Part shown: piece by piece, positions 1,062-63,629 of the stretch
How positions within the stretch are numbered: the first letter of the stretch is position 1
Layout of the letters: every line of letters starts with the position of its first letter
Source: Veillonella seminalis
GTDB taxonomy: Bacteria; Bacillota; Negativicutes; Veillonellales; Veillonellaceae
NCBI RefSeq assembly: GCF_003992065.1
Contig: NZ_RQUZ01000009.1
Location: forward strand, 62,001 to 126,000
Direction of reading: 5' to 3'
Length of the DNA: 64,000 nucleotides
Position numbers and translations under genes: made by a program
The notes under the pieces: model-generated
Told to the model about the DNA's origin: nothing
Database searches by the model: none
What the model saw: the letters and a program-made list of their open reading frames with translations, nothing else

Positions 1062-1274
1062 CCTGATACGAATACGGTACAACCCAATACTTAGTACTAT
1101 TTTACGTTATTCAGACAAATAATTCAAAACAAATTCTCTCCGTCCCCGATATTTTCCATGTCGGCACCTTGGTATATAAATTCGTAAAGCGCTATCGTGT
1201 TTCGCCGTTGCGCTTTTAATAATGTATGTAGCACTATGAACAATGAAACAAAACAGGTCCTCTCCCTCAGCCCC

Positions 1275-1556
1275 GATATCCTTTCTGACCAGCGCCTTGT
1301 TCGCAAGAACTTAGGGCGTGCCGCAAGGAGATATTTTAGGATGTTGCGACTTTCACTGAAGTTGATGCACTATTAATAAAGAAAACAAAACAGGTCCTCT
1401 AAGCAGCGACTTTGTTCTTAAGAACTCGGAACTGCGAGAGGACCTGTATTGCTTTCCTATATATTGTTAATTCTCATAGAAAGTCGCAACAAACGACTAA
1501 CATATTTCTTACTCACGCCCTAAGGGATACGAACCAAGTGCAGACAAGAGAATATC
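1275..1556. repeat. Nested inverted-repeat element A, between glnA and thiD
   Basis: Concentric complementary arms were found by eye: 1310-1320 with 1514-1524 (11 bp), 1343-1354 with 1479-1490 (12 bp, GTTGCGACTTTC), and 1390-1400 with 1437-1447 (11 bp, ACAGGTCCTCT). Imperfect pairing extends outward to about 1275 and 1556, which abuts the glnA stop codon at 1557. Two copies of the shared core lie at 1292-1318 and 1406-1434, each with an apical GTTC-tetraloop-GAAC hairpin (loops GCAA and TTAA). No open reading frame or transposase is present. The 1017-1556 interval holds nothing else convincing apart from the thiD leader hairpin. Confidence 0.7.
1379..1447 (-). terminator. Probable intrinsic terminator of glnA (innermost stem of element A)
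   Basis: On the minus strand an 11-bp stem ACAGGTCCTCT/AGAGGACCTGT encloses a smaller GCAG...CTGC and GTTC...GAAC hairpin, and is followed by TTTTGTTTTCTTT. It lies about 110 nt past the glnA stop codon. A second copy of the 3' arm with its T-tract (AGAGGACCTGT then TTTTGTTTC) lies at 1246-1263, so one 5' arm has two possible partners. Confidence 0.65.
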
Positions 1557-3449
1557 TTATAATACATTGCGTGTATATTCCGCGTATTTAGCTTCCAAAT
1601 CAAGCATTTTTTCATTCATTTCCATCTGCAATTTAGAAGCCGTATCATAATCACCGGCAGTAATAGCCTGGCCGATACGTGTGAACAAGGATGTATTGGA
1701 TCCTGTATCTTTTGCCAAATAATAACGCATTTCATTGATAGCATCCCAACGGGAGATATCCAAACCGTCATCACCGTGAATTGGTTTCATAGCACGAATA
1801 GTGTTGATATTGGCAGGAATCAAACGGTTAATCAATTCCAATTTCCAACGATTCAAAATACCGGCGATGAAGGATTCCATAAGGTCTTTGGCAAAAGCGC
1901 CGCCATTAACCAAAGCTTCAACTTTAGCAGGATTGTTTTTGAATCCTAAGATATTTTCCCAAACGGTTGCAGGTGGTACACCATAACGACTGTTACGTTC
2001 TTCTTCGGTATAATCTTCGAATACATTCTTTTCAGAACGATAAGCACGACCTGTTTCTAAATAATCTGCCGTATCTTCCGGATTTTTGGACAATTCAGCC
2101 AATAATTCTTCAGGCGTTTTACCGGATGTGATTACATAGCGCAAACCGTCAAGTACAGCAGAGTAAATCAAGGCAATAGCTGTGTAGGTGTTGGTGTAAG
2201 GGTTTGGCGAACGAAGTTCAAAACGAGTTGCCATTGGGTTACCGATATCACGAATCAACCCGCAAAGGATAGTACGGTTACGGCTTGGTTCATCCGGCTG
2301 ATTACCTAAGGATGTTACGATACAAATTGGTGCTTCAAAACCCGGTTTTAAACGATTCAAGGAGTCGGTAGTAGACGTAATGAATGGGTTAATAACTTCG
2401 TAGTTTTTAAGAAGCCCCATAATCGCACCGATACCAAGCGGGCTCAAGAAAGCTTTTTTCATATCTTCAGGGGAGAACAAGTTAACCATTTTACCGTTTT
2501 TCATTTTAGCCATTAAACCGAAATGTGTATGTTCCCCGGAACCGGCTACACCAATAATAGGTTTTGCCTGGAAGGTAACATCAAGACCGTTTTCACGGAA
2601 TACTTCACGAACGATAATACGAGCCTGTAATTCATTATCGGCAGTCTGCAAAGGATTGCCGGTGTATTTCCAGTCGATTTCAAGCTGTTCCAATACATGG
2701 TCCATATGGCCTTCGTCGTCTATTTTACCTTTAACGCCGCCTACTTCTTTATGACCCATTTCGGCTTTCAAACCGTAAGCATCAAGCATTTCAACAGCCT
2801 GTTCCATAGCGGTACGAACAGTGCCGTGAGTACGCTGCCAATACTGTTCCTGTAATTTCTGAGAAGTGGATAATTCTTTGGTGCTGACTACTTTAGATGG
2901 AGTTTTTACCCAAAATTCCAATTCCGTAGCCGTTGTGAAAATTAAATCGGCAATGTCATCTGCATTAACATGTTCCATGCCTTTTACTTTGTTTTTTTTC
3001 AAAAGTGTCATTAATTCAGCTTTAACAAAGTCTAAGGTTTCTTTCAAAATGGAACGGGAGTCAACATATCGTTCGTTGTGCATCAAGAATGCAGGAATAC
3101 GAAGCGTACCTGTCGGTAAACCTGTTGCCGGATCGATGTTTTCATAGTTGTAATCAATGAACCAGTTAACGCTTGGATCGCCCCAAATATCTACACGAGC
3201 ATTATTCAAGGTAGCAATACCGGTCAAAACAACGGAGGAACCGTCAGTCTGTACGGCACGACCTTCAAAGAAAGATTCATAATCATCAAAGAACATAGCG
3301 ATAGGAATTTTTTCATCCGTATCATTACCGGCCAAATCGACACCGACCAGAGAAACAAATTTAATTTCCGGATGCTGTTCCAATAAGGCCAAGACCCCTT
3401 CTTTACCATACTGACCGGCCGGGATGTAATACAACAAATCGTTTACCAT
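1557..3449 (-). CDS. glnA: Glutamine synthetase, long (about 630-residue) form
   Basis: This is a glutamine synthetase family protein, expected to condense glutamate and ammonia using ATP in the cytoplasm. At 630 residues it is longer than classical GSI (about 450). The catalytic barrel is recognisable from TELEFWVKTP (acidic metal ligands), GSGEHTHFG (ATP/metal histidine region), the arginine-rich SRNRTILCG segment and ATRFELRSPNPYTNTY near the C-terminal third. The N-terminal portion is less typical. A ribosome binding site GGAGG precedes the ATG. Its own consensus promoter and a leader hairpin lie upstream. Exact subfamily is uncertain, and a glutamine synthetase-like ligase with another substrate cannot be excluded. 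Confidence 0.85.
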   Translation of the reverse strand: MVNDLLYYIPAGQYGKEGVLALLEQHPEIKFVSLVGVDLAGNDTDEKIPIAMFFDDYESFFEGRAVQTDGSSVVLTGIATLNNARVDIWGDPSVNWFIDYNYENIDPATGLPTGTLRIPAFLMHNERYVDSRSILKETLDFVKAELMTLLKKNKVKGMEHVNADDIADLIFTTATELEFWVKTPSKVVSTKELSTSQKLQEQYWQRTHGTVRTAMEQAVEMLDAYGLKAEMGHKEVGGVKGKIDDEGHMDHVLEQLEIDWKYTGNPLQTADNELQARIIVREVFRENGLDVTFQAKPIIGVAGSGEHTHFGLMAKMKNGKMVNLFSPEDMKKAFLSPLGIGAIMGLLKNYEVINPFITSTTDSLNRLKPGFEAPICIVTSLGNQPDEPSRNRTILCGLIRDIGNPMATRFELRSPNPYTNTYTAIALIYSAVLDGLRYVITSGKTPEELLAELSKNPEDTADYLETGRAYRSEKNVFEDYTEEERNSRYGVPPATVWENILGFKNNPAKVEALVNGGAFAKDLMESFIAGILNRWKLELINRLIPANINTIRAMKPIHGDDGLDISRWDAINEMRYYLAKDTGSNTSLFTRIGQAITAGDYDTASKLQMEMNEKMLDLEAKYAEYTRNVL

Positions 3450-29973: not shown

Positions 29974-32684
29974 TAACGGCCACCTCCCTTACGGGCATCT
30001 TCCTGTAATTTATAAAGTACATTAAGTGCCTCAATCGGTGTCAAACTCATCACGTCGACGGCCAACAAATCATCAAGAACGGATGTGGTAAACAGATTGG
30101 CATTAGTGGGCATAGAAAATGTCGTATCATTGCTATTACCGGAATGAACAGGATTCGTTGTTCCCGTACCTGTTTGAGGATCCGTATTATTTATAATAAC
30201 TTGACCGGCTGTACCGGTCATGGCAGCTTCGCGGACACTACCGTTATTTACGTGAGATACGGCGGCCTGTTCCGTAGCCGAGCCTTCCAGTGCAGCTAAG
30301 ATTACTTCGGCACGCTTTAATACGGAATTTGGTAAACCTGCCAGTTTGGCTACATGAATACCATAACTTCGGTCTGCACCGCCACGCACAATACGGCGTA
30401 AAAAGACAACATCTTTGCCTTTTTCTTTAACTGCTACGGTGTAATTTTTAAGCTTTTCATATTGTTCTTCCAAACAAATAAGCTCGTGATAATGTGTAGC
30501 GAACAATGTTTTACCGTGAATATGTTTACAAATATATTCCACCACGGCTTGAGCAATACTGAGACCGTCAAAAGTACTTGTCCCACGCCCGATTTCATCG
30601 AGGATGAGCAAACTGTTGGATGTGGCATTATTAAGAATATACGCTACTTCTTTCATTTCTACCATAAATGTACTTTGACCGGTAGAAATATCATCACTGG
30701 CCCCGACACGTGTAAAAATACGGTCAACCGGTGAAATTACAGCCTCACGAGCCGGAATAAAAGAACCGATTTGGGCCATAATCATGAGTACCGCAACCTG
30801 ACGCATATAGGTGGATTTACCGGCCATGTTAGGTCCAGTAATGAGTAGGAATTCTTCACCGTTATGATTTAACGTAACATCATTCGGCACAAACACTTCT
30901 CGTTTTAAAAACTTCTCAATTACCGGATGACGACCGTCACGAATTGTGATTTGACCGTTCATCGTCATAGTCGGACAAATATAATTTTCTTCGTAGGCCA
31001 CTTGGGCCAAACCGGATAATACATCAAGATTCGCCAACGCATGAGCCGTTGCCTGGATTGGTTTAACTGCGGCTTTAACAGATTCACGAATTTCCTGATA
31101 TAATTTCTGCTCCAAGGAAATAATTTTATCTTTGGCACTTAAGATATTAACTTCAAATTCCTTGAGTTCAGGCGTAATATATCGCTCTGCATTCGCCAAG
31201 GTTTGTTTACGAATAAAATAATCCGGTACATCGGCCGCATTGGCATGCGATACTTCAAAATAATAACCAAATACTTTATTGTAACCGGTTTTTAGTCGGA
31301 TCCCTGTTTTGGAACGAGCCTCTTCTTCCAAACGATGCAACCATTCCTGGCTGTTTGTTGCCATAGAACGTAAATCATCAAGTTCTTGATTGAAACCGTC
31401 TCGAATAACACGGCCATCCTTCAAAGTAAGGGCCGGCTGTTCCGCAATAGCTCGATTTAATAAATCATACACATCCGTATGACAATCAATTTGACTTACT
31501 GTTTCTTGTAAAAGCGTACTTTCAAAAACACCGGCAATCGTTACCAAGTCCGGCAAAATACGCAAAGACTCACGAAGTGACGTAAAATCACGCGGTGAAA
31601 CGGAGCCTGTTTCTACGCGAGCCAAAATACGTTCAAAGTCAAAAATAAGCTTCAATAATTCACGTAAACGACCCTGTTCAGTCGGTTTCACAATGAGTTC
31701 CGTAATAGCTCGTTGGCGTCGTTCAATGTGATGAATATCCATCAGCGGACTTTCCACCCATTGTTTCAGAAGACGGGCCCCCATAGGAGTCAAGGTTTTG
31801 TCCAAAACCTGCAAGAGCGTTCCCTTTACACCGCCATCACGCAAATTATGAGTTACTTCCAAATGACGAAGGCTCGATGTATCGAGCACCATGCGATCGC
31901 CGATATGAAGCGGATGAATGTAATTAATGTGCGAAATGTCTGTTTTAATGACTGTAGCAAGGTAGGTTAATAAATATCCCAAACCTTCCAATACATCTTC
32001 TTCCAACAAACCGGCATCGGCAAAGTGAATCATGCCCTGTTCACGAACATCGGCTACCGGTAAATTAGGCATGAACGGCGATAATGCAACGTTTTCCAAT
32101 TGAACATCGATAAAGTCCTGTAATTCTTTGCCCAGCGGCAAACTACCAACCGTTACAATTTCCGATGGACGATACATAGTCAATGCATCTTGTATGGCAC
32201 TTTGGCGCTCACCATGATTAATTCTATCCCAAATGACTTCACCGGTGGAGACATCACAGAAAACCAGAATTAACGCCTCATCGGTACGATAGAAAAGTGC
32301 CAGGAAGTTATTTTCGCGAGCTTCCGTACCATTTTCGGTTAACACCGTGCCCGGCGTAATAACGCGAATTACATCGCGTTTAACAATGCCCTTAGCCTCT
32401 TTCGGATCTTCTACCTGCTCACAAATAGCTACCTTATAGCCTTTTTTTATTAACTTTTCAATATAGCTTTCTGCTGCATGATACGGCACCCCGCACATAG
32501 GCGCTTTCTCTGCCTCGCCTGAGTTGCGTCCGGTCAGGGTTATATTGAGCTCTCTTGAAGCCGTTAAAGCATCATCATAAAAGAGTTCATAAAAATCACC
32601 GAGGCGAAAGAACAACAACTCTTCTTTATATTTTTCTTTTATGGAAAAATACTGATCCATCATAGGCGTTTGTTTTTTACTCAT
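29973..32684 (-). CDS. mutS: DNA mismatch repair protein MutS
   Basis: The 903-residue protein recognises mismatches and small loops. The N-terminal mismatch-binding domain begins TPMMDQYFSIKEKYKEELLF and contains the Phe-x-Glu type wedge in FRLGDFYELF; the lever/clamp follows, then the ATPase with Walker A GPNMAGKSTYMRQ, STFMVEM, LLILDEIGRGTSTFDG and the ATHYHEL switch. A low-complexity S/T/N/G-rich tail (about 815-865) precedes the C-terminal dimer segment and may be disordered. The ATG at 32684 has GGAGG upstream; an in-frame GTG four codons earlier overlaps it. Confidence 0.97.
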   Translation of the reverse strand: MSKKQTPMMDQYFSIKEKYKEELLFFRLGDFYELFYDDALTASRELNITLTGRNSGEAEKAPMCGVPYHAAESYIEKLIKKGYKVAICEQVEDPKEAKGIVKRDVIRVITPGTVLTENGTEARENNFLALFYRTDEALILVFCDVSTGEVIWDRINHGERQSAIQDALTMYRPSEIVTVGSLPLGKELQDFIDVQLENVALSPFMPNLPVADVREQGMIHFADAGLLEEDVLEGLGYLLTYLATVIKTDISHINYIHPLHIGDRMVLDTSSLRHLEVTHNLRDGGVKGTLLQVLDKTLTPMGARLLKQWVESPLMDIHHIERRQRAITELIVKPTEQGRLRELLKLIFDFERILARVETGSVSPRDFTSLRESLRILPDLVTIAGVFESTLLQETVSQIDCHTDVYDLLNRAIAEQPALTLKDGRVIRDGFNQELDDLRSMATNSQEWLHRLEEEARSKTGIRLKTGYNKVFGYYFEVSHANAADVPDYFIRKQTLANAERYITPELKEFEVNILSAKDKIISLEQKLYQEIRESVKAAVKPIQATAHALANLDVLSGLAQVAYEENYICPTMTMNGQITIRDGRHPVIEKFLKREVFVPNDVTLNHNGEEFLLITGPNMAGKSTYMRQVAVLMIMAQIGSFIPAREAVISPVDRIFTRVGASDDISTGQSTFMVEMKEVAYILNNATSNSLLILDEIGRGTSTFDGLSIAQAVVEYICKHIHGKTLFATHYHELICLEEQYEKLKNYTVAVKEKGKDVVFLRRIVRGGADRSYGIHVAKLAGLPNSVLKRAEVILAALEGSATEQAAVSHVNNGSVREAAMTGTAGQVIINNTDPQTGTGTTNPVHSGNSNDTTFSMPTNANLFTTSVLDDLLAVDVMSLTPIEALNVLYKLQEDARKGGGR

Positions 32685-45213: not shown

Positions 45214-45996
45214 TCAGCCCTGACCGTCCTGAACCATATCAACGGAATCAGAAACCATTTGTTCTAAAGCTTGGTCAGCAGCTTCTTGGTGTTCACCCTG
45301 GTCATCCAAGGATTCGCCTTGACGGCCTTCCAATACAGCGTCAGCCATTTTGCCTGTTAACAATTTAACGGCACGGATAGCATCATCGTTTGCAGGGATT
45401 GGGAAGTCGATTTCGTCAGGATCACAGTTAGTGTCAACTGTAGCTACTACAGGGATACCCAATTTTTTAGCTTCTGCAATTGCAATGCGTTCTTTTTTAG
45501 GATCGATTACGAATAATGCGCCTGGCATTTTTGGCATATCTTTGATACCGCCAAGGTATTTTTCCAATTTTTCCATTTCATGACGCAGGCCGATAACTTC
45601 TTTCTTAGGAAGAAGTTCGAATGTGCCGTCTTCAGCCATTGTTTCAAGCTGTTTTAAACGTTTTACACGAGTTTCGATAGTTTTGAAGTTAGTAAGCATA
45701 CCACCTAACCAACGTTCGTTTACATAGAACATGTTAGCACGGATAGCTTCTTCTTTAACGGATTCCTGAGCCTGTTTCTTTGTGCCCACGAAAAGAATTA
45801 CTTCACCGTTCTGAGCAACTTCACGAAGGAAATCGTAAGCTTCTTCTACTTTTTTAACTGTTTTCTGAAGGTCGATGATATAAATACCATTACGTTCAGT
45901 GAAGATGAACTTAGCCATCTTAGGGTTCCATCTTCTTGTCTGGTGACCGAAGTGTACGCCGGCCTCCAATAATTGTTTCATTGATACTACTGCCAT
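45214..45996 (-). CDS. rpsB: Ribosomal protein uS2
   Basis: A 30S protein that contacts S1 and the platform. The 260 residues open with [20 protein letters not shown] and [20 protein letters not shown], and contain [34 protein letters not shown] and [22 protein letters not shown], all textbook uS2. GGAGG precedes the ATG. It leads the rpsB-tsf operon, with a likely promoter at 46108-46137 that lies inside element B. Confidence 0.97.
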
Positions 45997-46090: not shown

Positions 46091-46376
46091 TAATTTCATA
46101 CTTTATGAGTATATCACACGAACTGTTACTATGGCAAGCGGTTTGAGGCAAAATATTTTATCTCTTATGCGATGCAGCAATTAAATCGTTATAGAGGGTG
46201 GTGTAACCGTTTTTGCTCCTGGTTTGCTTCGCAAAAAAAGTCGCTTCAAACGTTCACACCACCCTCTTCACTATCATACAGCCTATCTAATTGCTGCATC
46301 GCTTCCCTCTAAAATATTACTCTCTCGAACGGCTTGCCGGTAGCATAGGTTCTCGTGCTATAAAAGTATGAAATTA
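46091..46376. repeat. Nested inverted-repeat element B, upstream of rpsB
   Basis: Concentric arms: 46091-46103 with 46364-46376 (13 bp, perfect), about 46133-46144 with 46327-46338 (7 perfect plus partial pairs), 46169-46183 with 46288-46302 (15 bp, GCGATGCAGCAATTA, perfect), and 46194-46204 with 46256-46266 (11 bp, GAGGGTGGTGT). At the centre, on the minus strand, the shared core GCGACTTTTTT with TTTGC-GAA-GCAAA lies at 46218-46244. The element covers much of the gap between rpsB and the autotransporter gene and contains no reading frame. Confidence 0.75.
46108..46137 (-). promoter_or_regulatory. Probable promoter of rpsB-tsf
   Basis: TTGCCA (46137-46132), 18-bp spacer, TATACT (46113-46108), about 110 bp from the rpsB start. 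It lies in the left arm of element B. The right arm contains a partly symmetric TTGCCG-N19-TATAAA reading outward on the plus strand (about 46335-46365). Confidence 0.6.
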
Positions 46377-46386
46377 AAAGCAAGAT

Positions 46387-46527
46387 GTGCCGTATAGGTC
46401 TTTTTATTATAACACAATTACTCTTTAGAAGGTTTTGGAGTACAAAAGCAAGGATTTGGGAGGATTATGCTTAGTACTGTTAGTTACTATCTATCAAGGA
46501 ATGTGAGTCATAAGACTTATACGGCAC
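46387..46527. repeat. Second inverted repeat beside element B
   Basis: GTGCCGTATAGGTCTT (46387-46402) is complementary to AAGACTTATACGGCAC (46512-46527) with a single G-U type difference. The 109 nt between show no coding character and no strong inner hairpin that I can see. On either strand the distal arm lacks a good U-tract. Confidence 0.6.
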
Positions 46528-46744: not shown

Positions 46745-48574
46745 TTAATCGTTCAATATGTAAACGGTACTAATCGGAGCCATGCGCTCGCCGTTTATTT
46801 CGGCACGACGTTTTTCGCTCGGACCGATTTTAAAGGTAGCGGATACGTTATACATGTTGTCATTATTACCTACACTGGTACCAAATGCCAGAAGCACATC
46901 TTCATTAGGTTGATACGATGCACCTAAGGCCATGGCTGAAGCTTCCCGATAAAAGCCACCGGCCACTGAAAAGTTCAATTTACTGCTCGGATCAAATGCC
47001 AAATTTCGAAGTCCTGCTAAAGCAGCCGACATGGCACCTACATCATGAATTTCCCCTTTCATCCCGGTAACATCTCGTTCTACTGTATTAACACGACCGT
47101 CCAAATCATCAACGCGATTATTTAAATCGTTAATTTGATTAGTGTGTTTATTTATAATCGTTGTATAGCCATCAGTATATTCTTTAACCGTAGCTCCAAT
47201 GTCATTTTCAACAGAACGAAGTTGTGCCACATTAACGGCATCACTGTCTTCCGAGCCGGCAGCTACATTCGTAATTTGACGGGTTCCATCATCATTACCT
47301 ACCGAAACAGCTCCGTAATTTCCTTTAACAGTACCGGCAATTGAAGTTTTATCGGTGGCCGAAGACTTTTCGGCACCGTACACTTCATTCTCAGACGCAG
47401 AAACTTTATTGGTTACCGACACATCCTTCAAACTATACCGATTAGCAATTGCCTGATTGCCTAATGCTACTCCGCCTTGTATTTCAACAAAAGACTCCGC
47501 TCCTATTGCTATACCGCCGGCACTGGTTGAATCAGCTTGACGTCCTATAGCAATAGAATCCGTATTTCTTGCATGTGTATCCGATCCCATGGAAATGGCG
47601 TAATCGCCACCGGCATTTGCATCATTATTGGCATTTGCATTTCGCACAGTGTTAGTACCGATTGAGATGCCGTGAAGTCCTGATGTTTGTACATTATACC
47701 CTAACGATGTAGACATACGACCGTCAGCTTGAGTATTAGTCCCTAATGAAGTGCTCCCCACTGCGGTTGCAATCGCATCAGACCCTAACGCTACAGCATA
47801 TGTATTTTGAGAACGTGCGTCATTGCCGATAGCCGTAGCATTCAGGCCATCTGCTTTAGCAATGGTGCCAAATGCTGAAGCGCCCCAGCCATTAGCATGT
47901 GCTTGATTACCGATTGCCGTATCACTCTCACCCAAAGCTTCTGCCTTTGCCCCGAGAGCTGTCGAAGCAATCCCCGTTGCTTTTGTTTTCAAGCCGATGG
48001 CAATACCTCGACCGGCCCCAACATAAGCTTCCTTACCAATTGCAATAGCGTTATTCATATTGTAAATAGTATCAAAATACGTATAAGTCTCGCTCATCGA
48101 AGCACCGCCGAATGCAATACTGTTTTCGCCAACGGCGTTAGCTCCATTGCCGAAGGCGGACGCATTTAGACCATTTACTTTAGCGCCCGCTCCTACGGCT
48201 GTTGCGCCACTCCACTTTGTTTCAGCATTAACACCTATAGCTACCGAAGTCTGTCCGCTTGTTTTTCGTTTATCCGAATTTGACATAGTATCACTATAAT
48301 TATCCGAGGCCGATACTTTGGCATTAGTTCCTACCGCTATGCCATAAGTAGCCACATTGACAACACCGGTACCATTACCTATGGCAATACTATTTACTGC
48401 CTCAGCTGTAGATTCCGGTCCCACAGCTAAACTGTTAGTCCCGGTTGCTACCGGAACTGCATCATCGGAATTAACAGCCAAATAATCTGTAGCTGCTGCC
48501 ACTTCATTTACGCCACATATAGCAAATGCCCCCAAAGCAAGTGCTGTCAGTATATCTCTTTGTTTCTTCTTCAT
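46745..48574 (-). CDS. Trimeric autotransporter adhesin (YadA/Hia-like)
   Basis: A 609-residue type Vc secreted surface protein. A signal peptide (MKKKQRDILTALALGAFAIC, cleaved near AAA-TDY) is followed by a YadA-type head of many SIAIGxxAxA-like 14-residue repeats (about 35-400, for example AIAIGKEAYVG and NTVRNANANN later), a neck with NVAAGSEDSDAVNVAQLRSVE, a short coiled-coil stalk (DLNNRVDDLDGRVNTVERDV), and a four-strand anchor barrel (about 520-600). Such proteins trimerise in the outer membrane and mediate adhesion. The product ends in YILND at a TAA that appears premature. Strongly AT-rich sequence lies upstream. Confidence 0.93.
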   Translation of the reverse strand: MKKKQRDILTALALGAFAICGVNEVAAATDYLAVNSDDAVPVATGTNSLAVGPESTAEAVNSIAIGNGTGVVNVATYGIAVGTNAKVSASDNYSDTMSNSDKRKTSGQTSVAIGVNAETKWSGATAVGAGAKVNGLNASAFGNGANAVGENSIAFGGASMSETYTYFDTIYNMNNAIAIGKEAYVGAGRGIAIGLKTKATGIASTALGAKAEALGESDTAIGNQAHANGWGASAFGTIAKADGLNATAIGNDARSQNTYAVALGSDAIATAVGSTSLGTNTQADGRMSTSLGYNVQTSGLHGISIGTNTVRNANANNDANAGGDYAISMGSDTHARNTDSIAIGRQADSTSAGGIAIGAESFVEIQGGVALGNQAIANRYSLKDVSVTNKVSASENEVYGAEKSSATDKTSIAGTVKGNYGAVSVGNDDGTRQITNVAAGSEDSDAVNVAQLRSVENDIGATVKEYTDGYTTIINKHTNQINDLNNRVDDLDGRVNTVERDVTGMKGEIHDVGAMSAALAGLRNLAFDPSSKLNFSVAGGFYREASAMALGASYQPNEDVLLAFGTSVGNNDNMYNVSATFKIGPSEKRRAEINGERMAPISTVYILND

Positions 48575-61317: not shown

Positions 61318-61499
61318 TAACAAGCTCCTCTCAAGATTGCAACTTACACTCTTGCTTAGAGTTTCGTTATGGAATATATAAATCCTACCCAATTACACTA
61401 CCGGTACGGATAAGCACCAATGGTATGAGTCTGCATCAAAAAAGCAGTTACTAAATTTACTAAATACAAATTATTTTTAATACAGGAAGGATGTATTTT

Positions 61500-62729
61500 A
61501 TGGAAACAAAGCGTTTACAGAATTATGCGCACGCTCTTTTAACCACCGGCGTAAATCTTCAAAAAAATCAAACACTCGTTATATCCGTTGATGTAGAAAA
61601 CAGCGATTTTGCTCTCATCGTAACTAAAGAAGCTTACGCCTTAGGTGCCAAGGAAGTCGTAGTTAATTGGCGTTCCACTGAAATCGGCAAAGAACGCTTA
61701 CTACATGCAGCCGAGGAAGTATTGGCTAACCCGGCTCCATGGATTCCAAGTTATTATCAAACATACGTCGATGCCGGTGCTGCTTTTTTATCTTTAATCA
61801 GTGCCAACACTAAAGCCTTGGCCGGTGTTCCATCGGAACGCATTGCCACTCAATCACGCAATCTCAATAAAGCTCTCGCTTTTTATCACGAAGCCATCAT
61901 GGACTCCACTCTCACTTGGTGTGTAGCCTCCGTTGCGACCTTGCGTTGGGCCGATTTATTAGGTTTCACAGGTAGTGATTCCGAAAAAACAGATGCACTT
62001 TGGTCTGAAATTTTCACACTCTGCCGCCTTGAAAATGTATCTGAAGAAGAAAACTTACCAAAACACTTAGAACGCCTCAGTCATCGCACCAAAGCCATGA
62101 ACGAATATCACTTTAAAACACTCCATTACACCTGTGCCAACGGTACAGACTTAACAATCGATTTGCCTAAAAACCATTTATGGCAAGGCGGTGCGGAATC
62201 CGCTAAAAACGGTACCATCTTTGATGCCAATATTCCTACCGAAGAAGTATTCACCGCACCTCAATACGACGGAGTTAACGGCGTTGTTTACAGTACCAAG
62301 CCGCTTATTTACCAAGGCAACGAGATTAATGATTTCCACTTCAAATTTGAAAACGGTAAAATCGTTGATTATGATGCCAAAGTCGGCAAAGAACATTTAA
62401 AACACTTGATTGAAACTGATGAAGGCTCTGCTTATTTAGGCGAAGTTGCTCTCGTAGATCACTATTCACCAATCAGCCAATCCAATCGTATTTATTTTGA
62501 AACTCTTTATGATGAAAATGCGTCCTGCCACCTCGCCATCGGTGCTGCCTACCCTACCTGCTTAGCCAATAGCGACGGTCTCAACAAAGAACATTTAAAA
62601 GCCGAAGGACTCAATGACTCTTTAACACATGTTGACTTTATGGTAGGTCATGAAACCATGAATATCGAAGGCACCACATTCGATGGGAAAAAAGTGCAGG
62701 TCATGAAGGAAGGTCGGTTGTTAATATAA
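61500..62729 (+). CDS. pepS: M29 family aminopeptidase
   Basis: A 409-residue cytoplasmic metallo-aminopeptidase of the M29 family (AmpS/PepS/aminopeptidase T), one of two plus-strand genes. Metal ligands expected for the family are seen: Glu in TEEVFTAPQYDGVNG, Glu in YLGEVALVDHYSP, His in CHLAIGAAYP, and His-x-Asp in LTHVDFMVGHETM. The N-terminal domain begins METKRLQNYAHALL. The start at 61500 is chosen because AGGAAGG lies 9 nt upstream; an ATG three codons earlier overlaps that site. It converges on comEB across two nested inverted repeats, and its stop codon lies at the edge of element C. Confidence 0.93.
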   Translation: METKRLQNYAHALLTTGVNLQKNQTLVISVDVENSDFALIVTKEAYALGAKEVVVNWRSTEIGKERLLHAAEEVLANPAPWIPSYYQTYVDAGAAFLSLISANTKALAGVPSERIATQSRNLNKALAFYHEAIMDSTLTWCVASVATLRWADLLGFTGSDSEKTDALWSEIFTLCRLENVSEEENLPKHLERLSHRTKAMNEYHFKTLHYTCANGTDLTIDLPKNHLWQGGAESAKNGTIFDANIPTEEVFTAPQYDGVNGVVYSTKPLIYQGNEINDFHFKFENGKIVDYDAKVGKEHLKHLIETDEGSAYLGEVALVDHYSPISQSNRIYFETLYDENASCHLAIGAAYPTCLANSDGLNKEHLKAEGLNDSLTHVDFMVGHETMNIEGTTFDGKKVQVMKEGRLLI

Positions 62730-63065
62730 GGTCTCGCCGTTTCGGTTCTTATGAGCGGGCTCGGAAATATCAATTAGAAGAAAGCCGGCAAATACCTTTT
62801 CAATCCAGGCTCTTATGAGCTTAGGAGTGAACACAATAGTAAAGAAAAATGACAGTAACCTCTCCTCCCGGGCTCTACAGAGCAAAGGTCGTTCAAGGTC
62901 ACTGTCATTTTTCTTTATGGCTATAGTGCTACACATCTACTTCCACACGCAACTCCTAAGCTCATACATGCCAAAGCATTTGAGTTTACTGCCGGCTTTC
63001 TTACTTCTCCTTAAATACATTCCGAGCCAGCTCATAAGAGCAAATAGCGCACGAGGCCAATATAT
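62722..63065. repeat. Nested inverted-repeat element C, following pepS
   Basis: Concentric arms: 62748-62756 and 62758-62766 with 63030-63038 and 63020-63028 (18 of 19 positions paired), 62778-62790 with 62990-63002 (13 bp), 62815-62828 with 62952-62965 (14 bp, ATGAGCTTAGGAGT), and 62841-62856 with 62901-62916 (16 bp). Weaker pairing reaches about 62722 and 63065. The minus-strand core lies at 62865-62891: CGACCTTT, then GCTC-TGTA-GAGC, then CCGGGAG. The outer left arm overlaps the pepS stop codon. No coding character. Confidence 0.78.
62841..62916 (+). terminator. Probable terminator of pepS (inner stem of element C)
   Basis: A 16-bp perfect stem, AAAGAAAAATGACAGT with ACTGTCATTTTTCTTT, whose 3' arm is itself T-rich. 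It should act as an intrinsic terminator for the plus strand and, because the 5' arm is A-rich, also on the minus strand. Confidence 0.65.
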
Positions 63066-63161
63066 TAACAACCTGTGGTGGGAGGAGAAAGAATAATACA
63101 GAATCGAAAAGCCACGTAAGAATTTAACAAGAATCAGCTCTTTCAATTCCTTTTCTTCCCC

Positions 63162-63629
63162 AACATTAGCCGTATAGCGCGCCCAGTTTTCTTCTTGGTC
63201 GTTGAGATTTGAGGCTAAATAATAGAAGGCAGTCAGATTGCTATCAGATACCAGGCATAAGCCCGCAATACTTTACTTTTACTTAGATTAAAAAAAAGAC
63301 AGACAAAGGATGTCCTCATATTCTCAATGATGTAACCCGCCATAAGTCTCTACTGTAATGTATAGCTCAAACAATATAAAACAGACTAACAAGGTCGAGC
63401 GACTTTTTTCGTAAGAAAACCCGAGCGAGTCCTTGTTAGTCTGTTTTAATTCTTTCTATGAATGTAGTTAAAATGGCGGGGTACCTATCAACATAGACTT
63501 CTTGTCTGTCTTTTTTTAACAATAACCATTTCTTAAGAAATAGCGGGCTATACTAGTATGATAAATACCTGACTGCCCCTATTTTTGCAAATTTAACCAA
63601 GAAGAAACGACGTGCTATACGCTAATGTT
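63162..63629. repeat. Nested inverted-repeat element D, abutting comEB
   Basis: Concentric arms: 63162-63170 with 63621-63629, 63172-63178 with 63614-63620, 63188-63199 with 63596-63607 (12 bp, TTTCTTCTTGGT), 63228-63236 with 63569-63577 (GGCAGTCAG), 63260-63266 with 63543-63549, 63291-63306 with 63502-63517 (16 bp), and 63378-63394 with 63431-63447 (17 bp). The plus-strand core is at 63399-63427: GCGACTTTT, TTTTC-GTAA-GAAAA, CCCGAGCG. The right arm includes the last codons and stop of comEB, so the left arm is an inverted near-copy of that gene end. Confidence 0.8.
63378..63447. terminator. Bidirectional terminator at the centre of element D
   Basis: A 17-bp perfect stem, AAAACAGACTAACAAGG with CCTTGTTAGTCTGTTTT, with A-rich outer left and T-rich outer right ends, which should end transcripts from both converging genes. 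Confidence 0.7.

What the first reader, a model, noticed from the sequence alone, without database searches (positions are those of the whole stretch)
62865..63427. A family of nested inverted repeats with a shared, covarying core
Four intergenic elements (1275-1556, 46091-46376, 62722-63065, 63162-63629) carry five copies of one short core near their centres. Each has GCGACTTT or a close variant on one side, an apical stem-loop, and a C/G-rich strand on the other. The apical stems differ but keep pairing: GTTC-GCAA-GAAC, GTTC-TTAA-GAAC, TTTGC-GAA-GCAAA, GCTC-TGTA-GAGC, TTTTC-GTAA-GAAAA. Complementary changes point to selection on structure. The concentric outer arms are unique to each copy. 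This may be an undescribed structured RNA/DNA element, terminator family or non-autonomous mobile repeat.
Basis: seen in the sequence. Interest (0 to 1): 0.8.

Follow-up and report, generated by a model that had tools for sequence, protein, structure and literature searches.

The report
Capped concentric palindromes at gene ends
In a group of Veillonella bacteria, some genes end in unusual hairpins that share one short conserved tip while their long arms differ from gene to gene yet still match themselves, which looks like an undescribed kind of transcription stop signal sitting inside a palindrome that keeps being rewritten.

Summary
All four elements fold as concentric hairpins (z -8 to -15) and share a ~26-nt cap, GA-CTT(T)-[4-5 bp stem]-(T/C)C-(R)GGA on one strand. 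A covariance model finds matches in 6 of 7 genomes of the genus (V. ratti group; 7 in the own genome) and one in another genus of the family; three more distant hits are false. Covariation beats shuffles on four of five measures. Unlinked loci share essentially the cap only.

New here: (1) the inner hairpin looks like an intrinsic terminator with a directional T-tract; (2) cap strand is fixed: antisense to the nearest facing gene end in 42 of 47 elements; (3) other long hairpins of the same genome lack outer arms; (4) outer arms include inverted copies of coding tails (14 of 43 against 0 of 24) and show no wobble signature; (5) at rpsB the inner arms differ between close relatives while cap and outermost arms are shared.

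Best reading: a conserved, strand-specific terminator tip embedded in DNA palindromes renewed by template switching. The last step is inferred; E1 and E4 do not show it. Y1-transposase or reverse-transcriptase mobility is not supported.

The parts
1275..1556 (.). E1, whole concentric palindrome downstream of the glutamine synthetase-like gene 1557-3449 (-)
   Evidence: fold z -8.2; outer flanks z 13.3; Pfam PF00120
1381..1456 (.). E1 innermost hairpin, 20-nt arms (90% complementary), T-tract on the minus (mRNA) strand
1406..1431 (+). E1 cap (F strand GCGACTTT-GTTCTTAAGAAC-TCGGAA), antisense to the gene it follows
   Evidence: CM R2 42.7 bits, E 3.8e-10 (E1 is one of the 16 rows of the model); orientation
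1292..1318 (+). second core inside the outer left arm of E1 (GCGCCTTGTTCGCAAGAACTTAGGGCG)
   Evidence: pairs in part with the right arm
46091..46376 (.). E2, concentric palindrome upstream of rpsB (45214-45996, -); its outermost right arm (minus strand) carries a promoter-like TATACT
   Evidence: fold z -12.5; outer flanks z 14.6; Pfam PF00318; promoter-like box read by eye only
46193..46267 (.). E2 innermost hairpin; arms at background identity to those of V. ratti and KGMB01456 at the same site
46217..46244 (-). E2 cap GCGACTTTTTTTGCGAAGCAAACCAGGA
   Evidence: CM R2 32.1 bits, E 1.7e-6 (a row of the model)
62716..63073 (.). E3, concentric palindrome after the M29 aminopeptidase gene (61491-62729, +); outermost arm includes its last codons
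   Evidence: fold z -15.4; outer flanks z 12.6; PF02073
62840..62917 (.). E3 innermost hairpin, 22-nt arms (95% complementary), A-tract and T-tract
62866..62892 (-). E3 cap ACGACCTTTGCTCTGTAGAGCCCGGGA, antisense to the peptidase gene
   Evidence: CM R2 38.0 bits, E 1.6e-8 (a row of the model); orientation
63162..63629 (.). E4, concentric palindrome at the 3' end of the dCMP deaminase (comEB-like) gene (ending 63615, -)
   Evidence: fold z -10.9; outer flanks z 10.1; PF00383
63377..63448 (.). E4 innermost hairpin, 18-bp perfect arms, A-tract and T-tract
63399..63426 (+). E4 cap GCGACTTTTTTCGTAAGAAAACCCGAGC, antisense to the deaminase gene
   Evidence: CM R2 50.9 bits, E 5.9e-13 (a row of the model); orientation

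Best explanation
Each element has two parts with different logic. (A) The innermost ~75 nt is an intrinsic transcription terminator with an unusually long stem (about 18-25 bp) and a conserved, strand-specific tip. Read in the mRNA that ends there, the tip is 5'-UCCGA-GUUC-UUAC-GAAC-AA(A)-GUC-3' (stem and loop exchangeable, flanking mismatches conserved). The arms need only pair, so their sequence is free. The fixed orientation argues that the tip works in the transcript, most likely as a binding site (protein, or RNA polymerase itself) that tunes termination or protects the mRNA 3' end. (B) Around this hairpin the DNA is often a much larger concentric palindrome. Its outer arms are inverted copies of local flanking DNA, sometimes including the last codons of the gene, most likely made and renewed when replication switches template at the capped hairpin. 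This copying, together with recombination between caps, replaces or extends the arms while the cap stays. Shown by computation: cap family, covariation, orientation, directional T-tracts, outer arms specific to cap-bearing hairpins in the sampled contig, inverted coding tails, different arms with the same cap at one site in relatives. Inferred: termination in vivo, the tip acting as RNA, template switching as the copying mechanism, any binding partner.
For: Cap family: R2 matches in 6 of 7 genus genomes (E<=1) and in G014 of another genus. Of 31 hits folded, 27 have full long arms reaching beyond the model and 4 are tandem copies with truncated arms. Covariation: 80.8% cells paired against 64.1 shuffled, 41 double-change cells against 13.3, score 0.479 against 0.200 (0 of 500 shuffles), 0.234 for the best slid structure. 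Terminator: on the mRNA strand a T-tract (6 or more T in 8) lies downstream in 13 of 15 tandem-context elements with antisense cap, an A-tract upstream in 6 of 15; in the other 32 the numbers are 25 and 21; misplaced tracts (upstream T, downstream A) 4 and 0 of 15, 3 and 5 of 32. Contexts by ORF calls: 28 convergent, 18 tandem, 0 divergent, 1 unknown of 47. Orientation: cap F strand antisense to the nearest facing gene end in 42 of 47 elements (p 2.5e-8) and 14 of 17 hand-labelled loci (p 0.013); merging linked loci after one search gives 11 of 13 (p about 0.02, worked out by hand). Outer arms: E1-E4 z 10-15, 28 of 47 elements z>4; 27 other long hairpins of contig C1 mean z 0.4, 1 above 3, that one (C1:171342) itself cap-like. 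Inverted coding tail (last 40 coding bases plus 5) z>4 in 14 of 43 elements at 6 loci, 0 of 24 controls. E3 against V. ratti: 20 Watson-Crick to Watson-Crick double changes on the three-species consensus structure, 21 against 16 single broken on the own structure; the 26 double-changed pairs are clustered (12 adjacent neighbours against 4.9 permuted, p 0.0004). rpsB site: cap identity 0.78-0.89 but inner-arm identity 0.43-0.59 among three close relatives (unrelated-locus background 0.53, 95th percentile 0.66), outermost arms homologous. Inner arms of tandem-context elements lean to G-U over A-C on the mRNA strand (11 against 3); outer arms do not (20 against 14, and 53 against 63 in the rest).
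Against: The rpsB-site elements (E2 and G006:C4:2986) break the rule: no T-tract by the 6-of-8 count, sense orientation. Also sense: G004:C24:31771, G001:C1:1747344, and G006:C30:14297, a near tie between two genes (373 and 400 nt). Against V. ratti, E4 shows 9 double Watson-Crick changes against 34 single and 13 double broken pairs with 39 gapped, and E1 shows 0 against 4 and 1, so the double-change signal rests on E3 alone; one search used a structure fitted to the compared sequences. The 11:3 wobble lean is small and partly repeated orthologues. The antisense strand of the cap has RNA-like features (GNRA-type loop, opposed GA/GA), which would fit an antisense RNA or DNA hairpin too. 19 of 47 elements lack significant outer arms, so the two parts are separable. 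At E3 and E4 the inner arms are the better conserved part and middle layers changed, so growth is not strictly inside-out. Over all 121 same-locus cross-species pairs cap identity (mean 0.78) is only moderately above that between loci (0.69). The data cannot by themselves separate template switching from selection on pairing. No expression data were available.
Confidence: 0.5

Rival explanations
1. DNA-level element: the cap is a mismatch-bearing DNA hairpin or cruciform tip recognised by a DNA-processing protein, and the palindromes exist for that; termination is incidental.
For: Outer arms extend beyond the T-tract of the inner hairpin and into coding sequence; no wobble signature in outer arms; inner arms almost purely Watson-Crick (1074 of 1162 aligned pairs); E2 is not terminator-like.
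Against: Orientation follows transcription, 42 of 47, also within one convergent locus where opposite caps sit by opposite genes, which a symmetric DNA site or replication direction does not explain; T-tract direction follows the gene.
Confidence: 0.22
2. Ordinary long-stem terminators plus mutational bias: long hairpins in this genome grow and self-correct by quasipalindrome template switching, and the common cap is a relic or a fold-stabilising tip comparable to UUCG (the comparison is recalled).
For: Long-stem hairpins are common in this genome (33 with score 14 or more in 331 kb); clustered double changes in E3; quasipalindrome-associated template-switch mutation is a known process (PMC7202029, start of abstract in the listing).
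Against: Other long hairpins show no outer arms (1 of 27) and no inverted coding tails (0 of 24); a tip of 21-35 nt at 88-100% identity between differently labelled loci (40 hits, 38 of them at 92% or more) exceeds a stabilising tetraloop.
Confidence: 0.13
3. Non-autonomous mobile repeat: the cap, or cap plus arms, moves into terminators.
For: Near-identical caps at unlinked loci; G001:C1:554222 and G002:C1:378725 share arms at different loci (81 nt at 79%); tandem copies in G006 and G002.
Against: No Y1 transposase and no reverse transcriptase in 5 of 6 carriers each, the own genome among them; several sites occupied in more than one species; arms not shared between most loci. Other transposase families were not searched.
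Confidence: 0.1
4. Antisense small RNA: the F strand is transcribed from the opposite side and acts on the 3' end of the mRNA.
For: F strand carries GNRA-type loop and opposed GA/GA; orientation antisense.
Against: In tandem contexts it would need a dedicated antisense promoter (not searched for); Rfam has no match above gathering and only chance-like ones below it.
Confidence: 0.05

Closest known systems
Intrinsic (Rho-independent) terminators
   Same: Stem-loop then T-tract at gene 3' ends, A- and T-tracts between convergent genes
   Different: Stem 18-25 bp plus a capped tip of about 34-36 nt, beyond the limits used by TransTermHP (loop at most 13 nt, whole stem-loop at most 59 nt; passages of PMC1852404); conserved oriented tip; concentric outer arms
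Terminator stems with conserved tip nucleotides (HRC-8-4 motif; [quoted passage not shown]
   Different: Those riboswitch classes act as ligand-dependent switches; here the position is at 3' ends of varied housekeeping genes
DNA uptake sequence terminators (Neisseria, Pasteurellaceae)
   Same: Repeated sequence built into terminator hairpins
   Different: There the conserved word forms the hairpin and generally occurs 1,000 times or more (PMC1852404, passages); here the tip is conserved, arms differ and carriers have 7-15 model matches
REP/BIME elements with RAYT transposases (properties recalled)
   Same: Intergenic imperfect palindromes with family resemblance
   Different: No Y1 transposase in 5 of 6 carriers; arms differ between loci
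Quasipalindromes corrected by template switching
   Same: Imperfect inverted repeats whose arms homogenise; clustered changes in E3
   Different: Not known to me (recalled) to carry a conserved central cap or to be specific to one hairpin class

Membership tests
Intrinsic terminators | Hairpin followed by a U-tract at gene 3' ends | tested here: met
   T-tract downstream on the mRNA strand in 13 of 15 tandem and 25 of 32 other elements; E2 fails
Intrinsic terminators | Terminates transcription in vivo | not testable with these tools
   no transcript data
Tip-conserved terminators / riboswitches (HRC-8-4, guanidine-IV) | Conserved tip nucleotides on a terminator stem | tested here: met
   cap alignment and cap-only sharing
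Tip-conserved terminators / riboswitches (HRC-8-4, guanidine-IV) | Match to a described RNA family | tested here: not met
   Rfam: only a tRNA above gathering in the window; below gathering only miRNA/snoRNA models in three loci
Tip-conserved terminators / riboswitches (HRC-8-4, guanidine-IV) | Common functional theme of linked genes | tested here: not met
   20 neighbouring genes: varied metabolic and housekeeping functions
REP/RAYT | Y1 transposase in the genome | tested here: not met
   PF01797 in 1 of 7 genus genomes (G005 only); 5 of 14 control genomes rang
REP/RAYT | Conserved palindromic sequence including the arms | tested here: not met
   unlinked loci share the cap, with two partial exceptions
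Retroelement-derived hairpins | Reverse transcriptase in the genome | tested here: not met
   PF00078 in 2 of 7 (G003, which has no R2 match, and G005)
DNA uptake sequences | Hundreds to thousands of copies | tested here: not met
   0-15 matches per genome at E<=1
Quasipalindrome template switching | Clustered complementary changes in both arms | tested here: inconclusive
   met for E3 (p 0.0004); E1 and E4 show no excess of double changes
Quasipalindrome template switching | Observed conversion of one arm from the other | not testable with these tools
   needs dense strain series or evolved lines

The most novel reading that the evidence does not exclude
A self-renewing genetic element: a 26-nt, strand-specific terminator tip that nucleates palindrome formation in whatever DNA lies beside it, so that the cap is inherited while its arms are repeatedly overwritten by inverted copies of neighbouring sequence, including the ends of genes. 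That would be a heritable element defined by a tip and a copying process, with no conserved arms and no encoded enzyme.
Probability: 0.22. Interest if true: 0.85.

Novelty: new variant of a known kind. Interest (0 to 1): 0.6.

Why it matters
If right, bacteria carry terminators whose identity lies in a conserved RNA tip outside the size limits of a standard terminator finder, and whose arms are rewritten while pairing is kept. It gives a natural system in which template switching, selection on pairing and a conserved binding motif can be separated, and a marker for how inverted repeats grow into coding sequence. The strict orientation makes a binding partner a directly testable prediction.

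Tried and rejected
Consensus pattern with 2 mismatches: no better than its reversed control. First covariance model R1: 5 of 11 loci inspected had no arms (L111, L088, L093, L100, L095), replaced by R2. R2 hits outside the family (L186, L187, L188 in G248, G121, G169) have no long arms and are taken as chance; that class-wide search used stricter filters. Rfam weak matches were miRNA- and snoRNA-like shapes only. Mobility by Y1 transposase or reverse transcriptase: rejected for 5 of 6 carriers each. Strict inside-out growth: fits the rpsB site but not E3 and E4, so not claimed. RNA selection on outer arms: no G-U excess. A known RNA for 46387-46527: no convincing Rfam match. Papers: searches listed no description of such elements; only listings were seen, except passages of PMC8632094 and PMC1852404.

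Limits of counts: of 54 R2 rows in the genus 46 entered the 47-element set (plus G014); 8 rows were left out (G002:C1:285259 and 285392, which are tandem copies, and G002:C7:24549, G005:C6:40851, G005:C23:10896, G004:C15:20754, G001:C1:245435, G001:C1:785277, not inspected). Of 33 hairpins in contig C1, 27 were tested as controls and 3 as capped or spacer-alike (241206, 241291, 242977); three (67493, 69004, 295820) were not tested. The capped hairpin at C1:256397 was tested too although one search did not list it. The coding-tail control used 26 of those 27 hairpins, 24 with a facing gene within 250 nt. Genes were called as open frames of 90 aa or more; a doubtful 93-aa frame overlaps E3. The strand of G005:C2:103918 was entered wrongly and corrected from then on. 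Locus labels were made by hand; one search showed that SDF1, C24_31 and SDF3, SDF2 and arginase, and pycB and MTase are linked or related, hence the merged count. Several elements are orthologues or tandem copies, so element-level p values overstate independence. The covariation structure was drawn from the same sequences, which favours it over slid versions. The output was cut; one search recounts it from the same file.

Full report
What was checked. The four elements E1-E4 were read and folded: stretches of 302-488 nt, energies -105 to -168 kcal/mol, z -8.2 to -15.4, 0 of 100 shuffles as good for each. In a scan of the window with 260-nt windows the four places are the strongest on the plus strand; on the minus strand E4 ties with 23001. 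In all four the innermost arms are 18-22 nt long with 34-36 nt between them (I2, I6, I7, I8). The only Rfam match above gathering in the window is a tRNA. A 643-aa protein of the window is 96% identical in Veillonella ratti ATCC 17746 and Veillonella sp. KGMB01456; the genome has 2.25 Mb in 26 contigs.

The family. A first model found further copies in related genomes, some of which were folded (5 of 11 inspected loci had no arms). A second model from 16 cores gives 54 matches in the seven genus genomes at E<=1, 7 of them in the own genome and none in G003. Of 31 hits folded, 27 show long arms reaching beyond the model; the other four are tandem copies with cut arms. Among 21 other genomes of the family one has a match (G014), with long arms. 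Among 380 genomes of the class, searched with stricter filters, the three further hits have no long arms.

Cap anatomy. On the strand called F the cap reads NN-GA-CTT(T)-[GTTC GTAA GAAC or another 4-5 bp stem]-TC-GGA-NN or GACTTTT-[stem]-CCAGGA; a second type reads CCATT-[GTTCGTAAGAAC]-GCCGG. GA faces GA. Covariation over 16 cores: 80.8% of cells paired against 64.1 (sd 2.0) shuffled, 11 pairs with double changes against 6.6, 41 double-change cells against 13.3, score 0.479 against 0.200, none of 500 shuffles as high; the best slid structure reaches 0.234; the fifth measure, further pair types, did not exceed shuffles (146 of 500). Between differently labelled loci, 40 BLAST hits centred on both caps are 21-35 nt long at 88-100% identity (38 at 92% or more) and 10 are longer; 8 of those 10 join linked loci, the other two are G001:C1:554222 with G002:C1:378725 (81 nt, 79%) and G006:C21:6563 with G006:C3:36122 (51 nt, 80%) (from the file).

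Terminator character and orientation. By open-frame of 47 elements lie between convergent genes, 18 in tandem contexts, 0 between divergent genes, 1 unknown. On the mRNA strand 13 of 15 tandem-context elements have a downstream T-tract and 6 of 15 an upstream A-tract; among the other 32 the numbers are 25 and 21; misplaced tracts are rare. The F strand of the cap is antisense to the nearest gene whose 3' end faces the element in 42 of 47 elements and 14 of 17 hand-labelled loci, or 11 of 13 after merging linked loci. The five sense cases are the two rpsB-site elements, G004:C24:31771, G001:C1:1747344 and G006:C30:14297. At the deaminase locus minus-strand caps lie on the side of the plus gene and plus-strand caps on the side of the minus gene in the species with two or more caps, with G006:C30:14297 near the middle, so replication direction cannot be the cause. 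Twenty neighbouring genes were identified: glutamine synthetase, M29 peptidase, dCMP deaminase, a class I (I/L/M/V) tRNA synthetase, topoisomerase, SAM synthetase, a carboxylase subunit, malic enzyme, three dicarboxylate symporters, an arginase-family protein and others.

Outer arms. In 331 kb of contig C1, 27 other long hairpins have flanks no more complementary than shuffled (mean z 0.4; the one above 3 has a cap-like tip), whereas E1-E4 score 10-15, and C1:241291, 242977 and 256395 score 20.3, 13.8 and 4.0; the neighbouring hairpin 241206 scores 0.1. Over seven carrier genomes 28 of 47 capped elements exceed z 4, 19 do not. The last 40 coding bases plus 5 have an inverted copy on the other side of the cap (z>4) in 14 of 43 elements, at six loci, and in 0 of 24 controls. 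These outer arms lie beyond the T-tract, and their mismatches show no G-U preference (20 G-U and 14 A-C; 53 and 63), so they look like a DNA-level product.

Turnover. On a consensus structure of three species E3 differs from V. ratti by 20 Watson-Crick to Watson-Crick double changes, 13 transitions and 7 transversions; the 26 double-changed pairs are clustered (p 0.0004). On the own structure alone the count is 21 double changes against 16 single broken pairs; the same count for E4 is 9 against 34 single and 13 double broken with 39 gapped, and for E1 0 against 4 and 1, so this signal rests on E3. At the rpsB site the own genome, V. ratti and KGMB01456 share the outermost arms and the cap but have unrelated inner arms, although the first 345-364 nt of the compared stretch, mainly rpsB, are 96-98% identical. 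At the glutamine synthetase site the caps of G001 and the own genome are 0.81 identical while inner arms are at background (0.52). In other cases (E1, E4 and the SDF1 and UPF0014 sites) inner arms are conserved between close relatives (0.82 or more). In G006 one copy combines the left arm of one neighbour with the right arm of another (G006:C30:13946), as expected from recombination at the cap.

Reading. The simplest account is a terminator with a conserved tip acting in the transcript, embedded in a DNA palindrome made and renewed by template switching. The first half rests on orientation, T-tracts and covariation; the second on outer arms, inverted coding tails, arm replacement at rpsB and the clustered changes of E3. 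Neither was tested by experiment. The E2 site upstream of rpsB does not fit the terminator part.

Noticed in passing
window 46387-46527 (-): A separate uncapped hairpin (RNA z -6.9) upstream of rpsB with a conserved interior, present in V. ratti and KGMB01456; possible unannotated small RNA, no convincing Rfam match. The V. ratti E2 inner arm resembles its arm.
   Followed up: partly
L146 (G002:C1:283500-287500): Four tandem copies, about 133 bp apart, of one capped hairpin behind the glutamine synthetase-type gene; only one keeps full arms.
   Followed up: partly
G000:C1:242977-243053 (L175) and G000:C1:171342-171401 (L171): Concentric palindromes with cap-like tips that are not among the R2 matches; the family is probably larger than counted.
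   Followed up: partly
window 1246-1264: An extra direct copy of the E1 inner arm (AAACAAAACAGGTCCTCTC) just outside the element, not seen at that place in V. ratti L052.
   Followed up: no
L161 (G005:C2:56000-59500) and L162 (G004:C9:46500-50000): Cap-like stretches without matching arms beside the rpsB element, and a partial tandem duplication of a cap-plus-arm unit in KGMB01456.
   Followed up: partly
L149 (G004:C24:30000-36136): The two capped elements at 31771 and 34431 match each other over about 500 nt at 73%, and the own-genome copy at C4:143396 has the arms of one next to the gene type of the other: a possible rearrangement between capped elements.
   Followed up: no
window 46748-48574 (-): A trimeric autotransporter adhesin gene (YadA head, stalk and anchor domains).
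   Followed up: no
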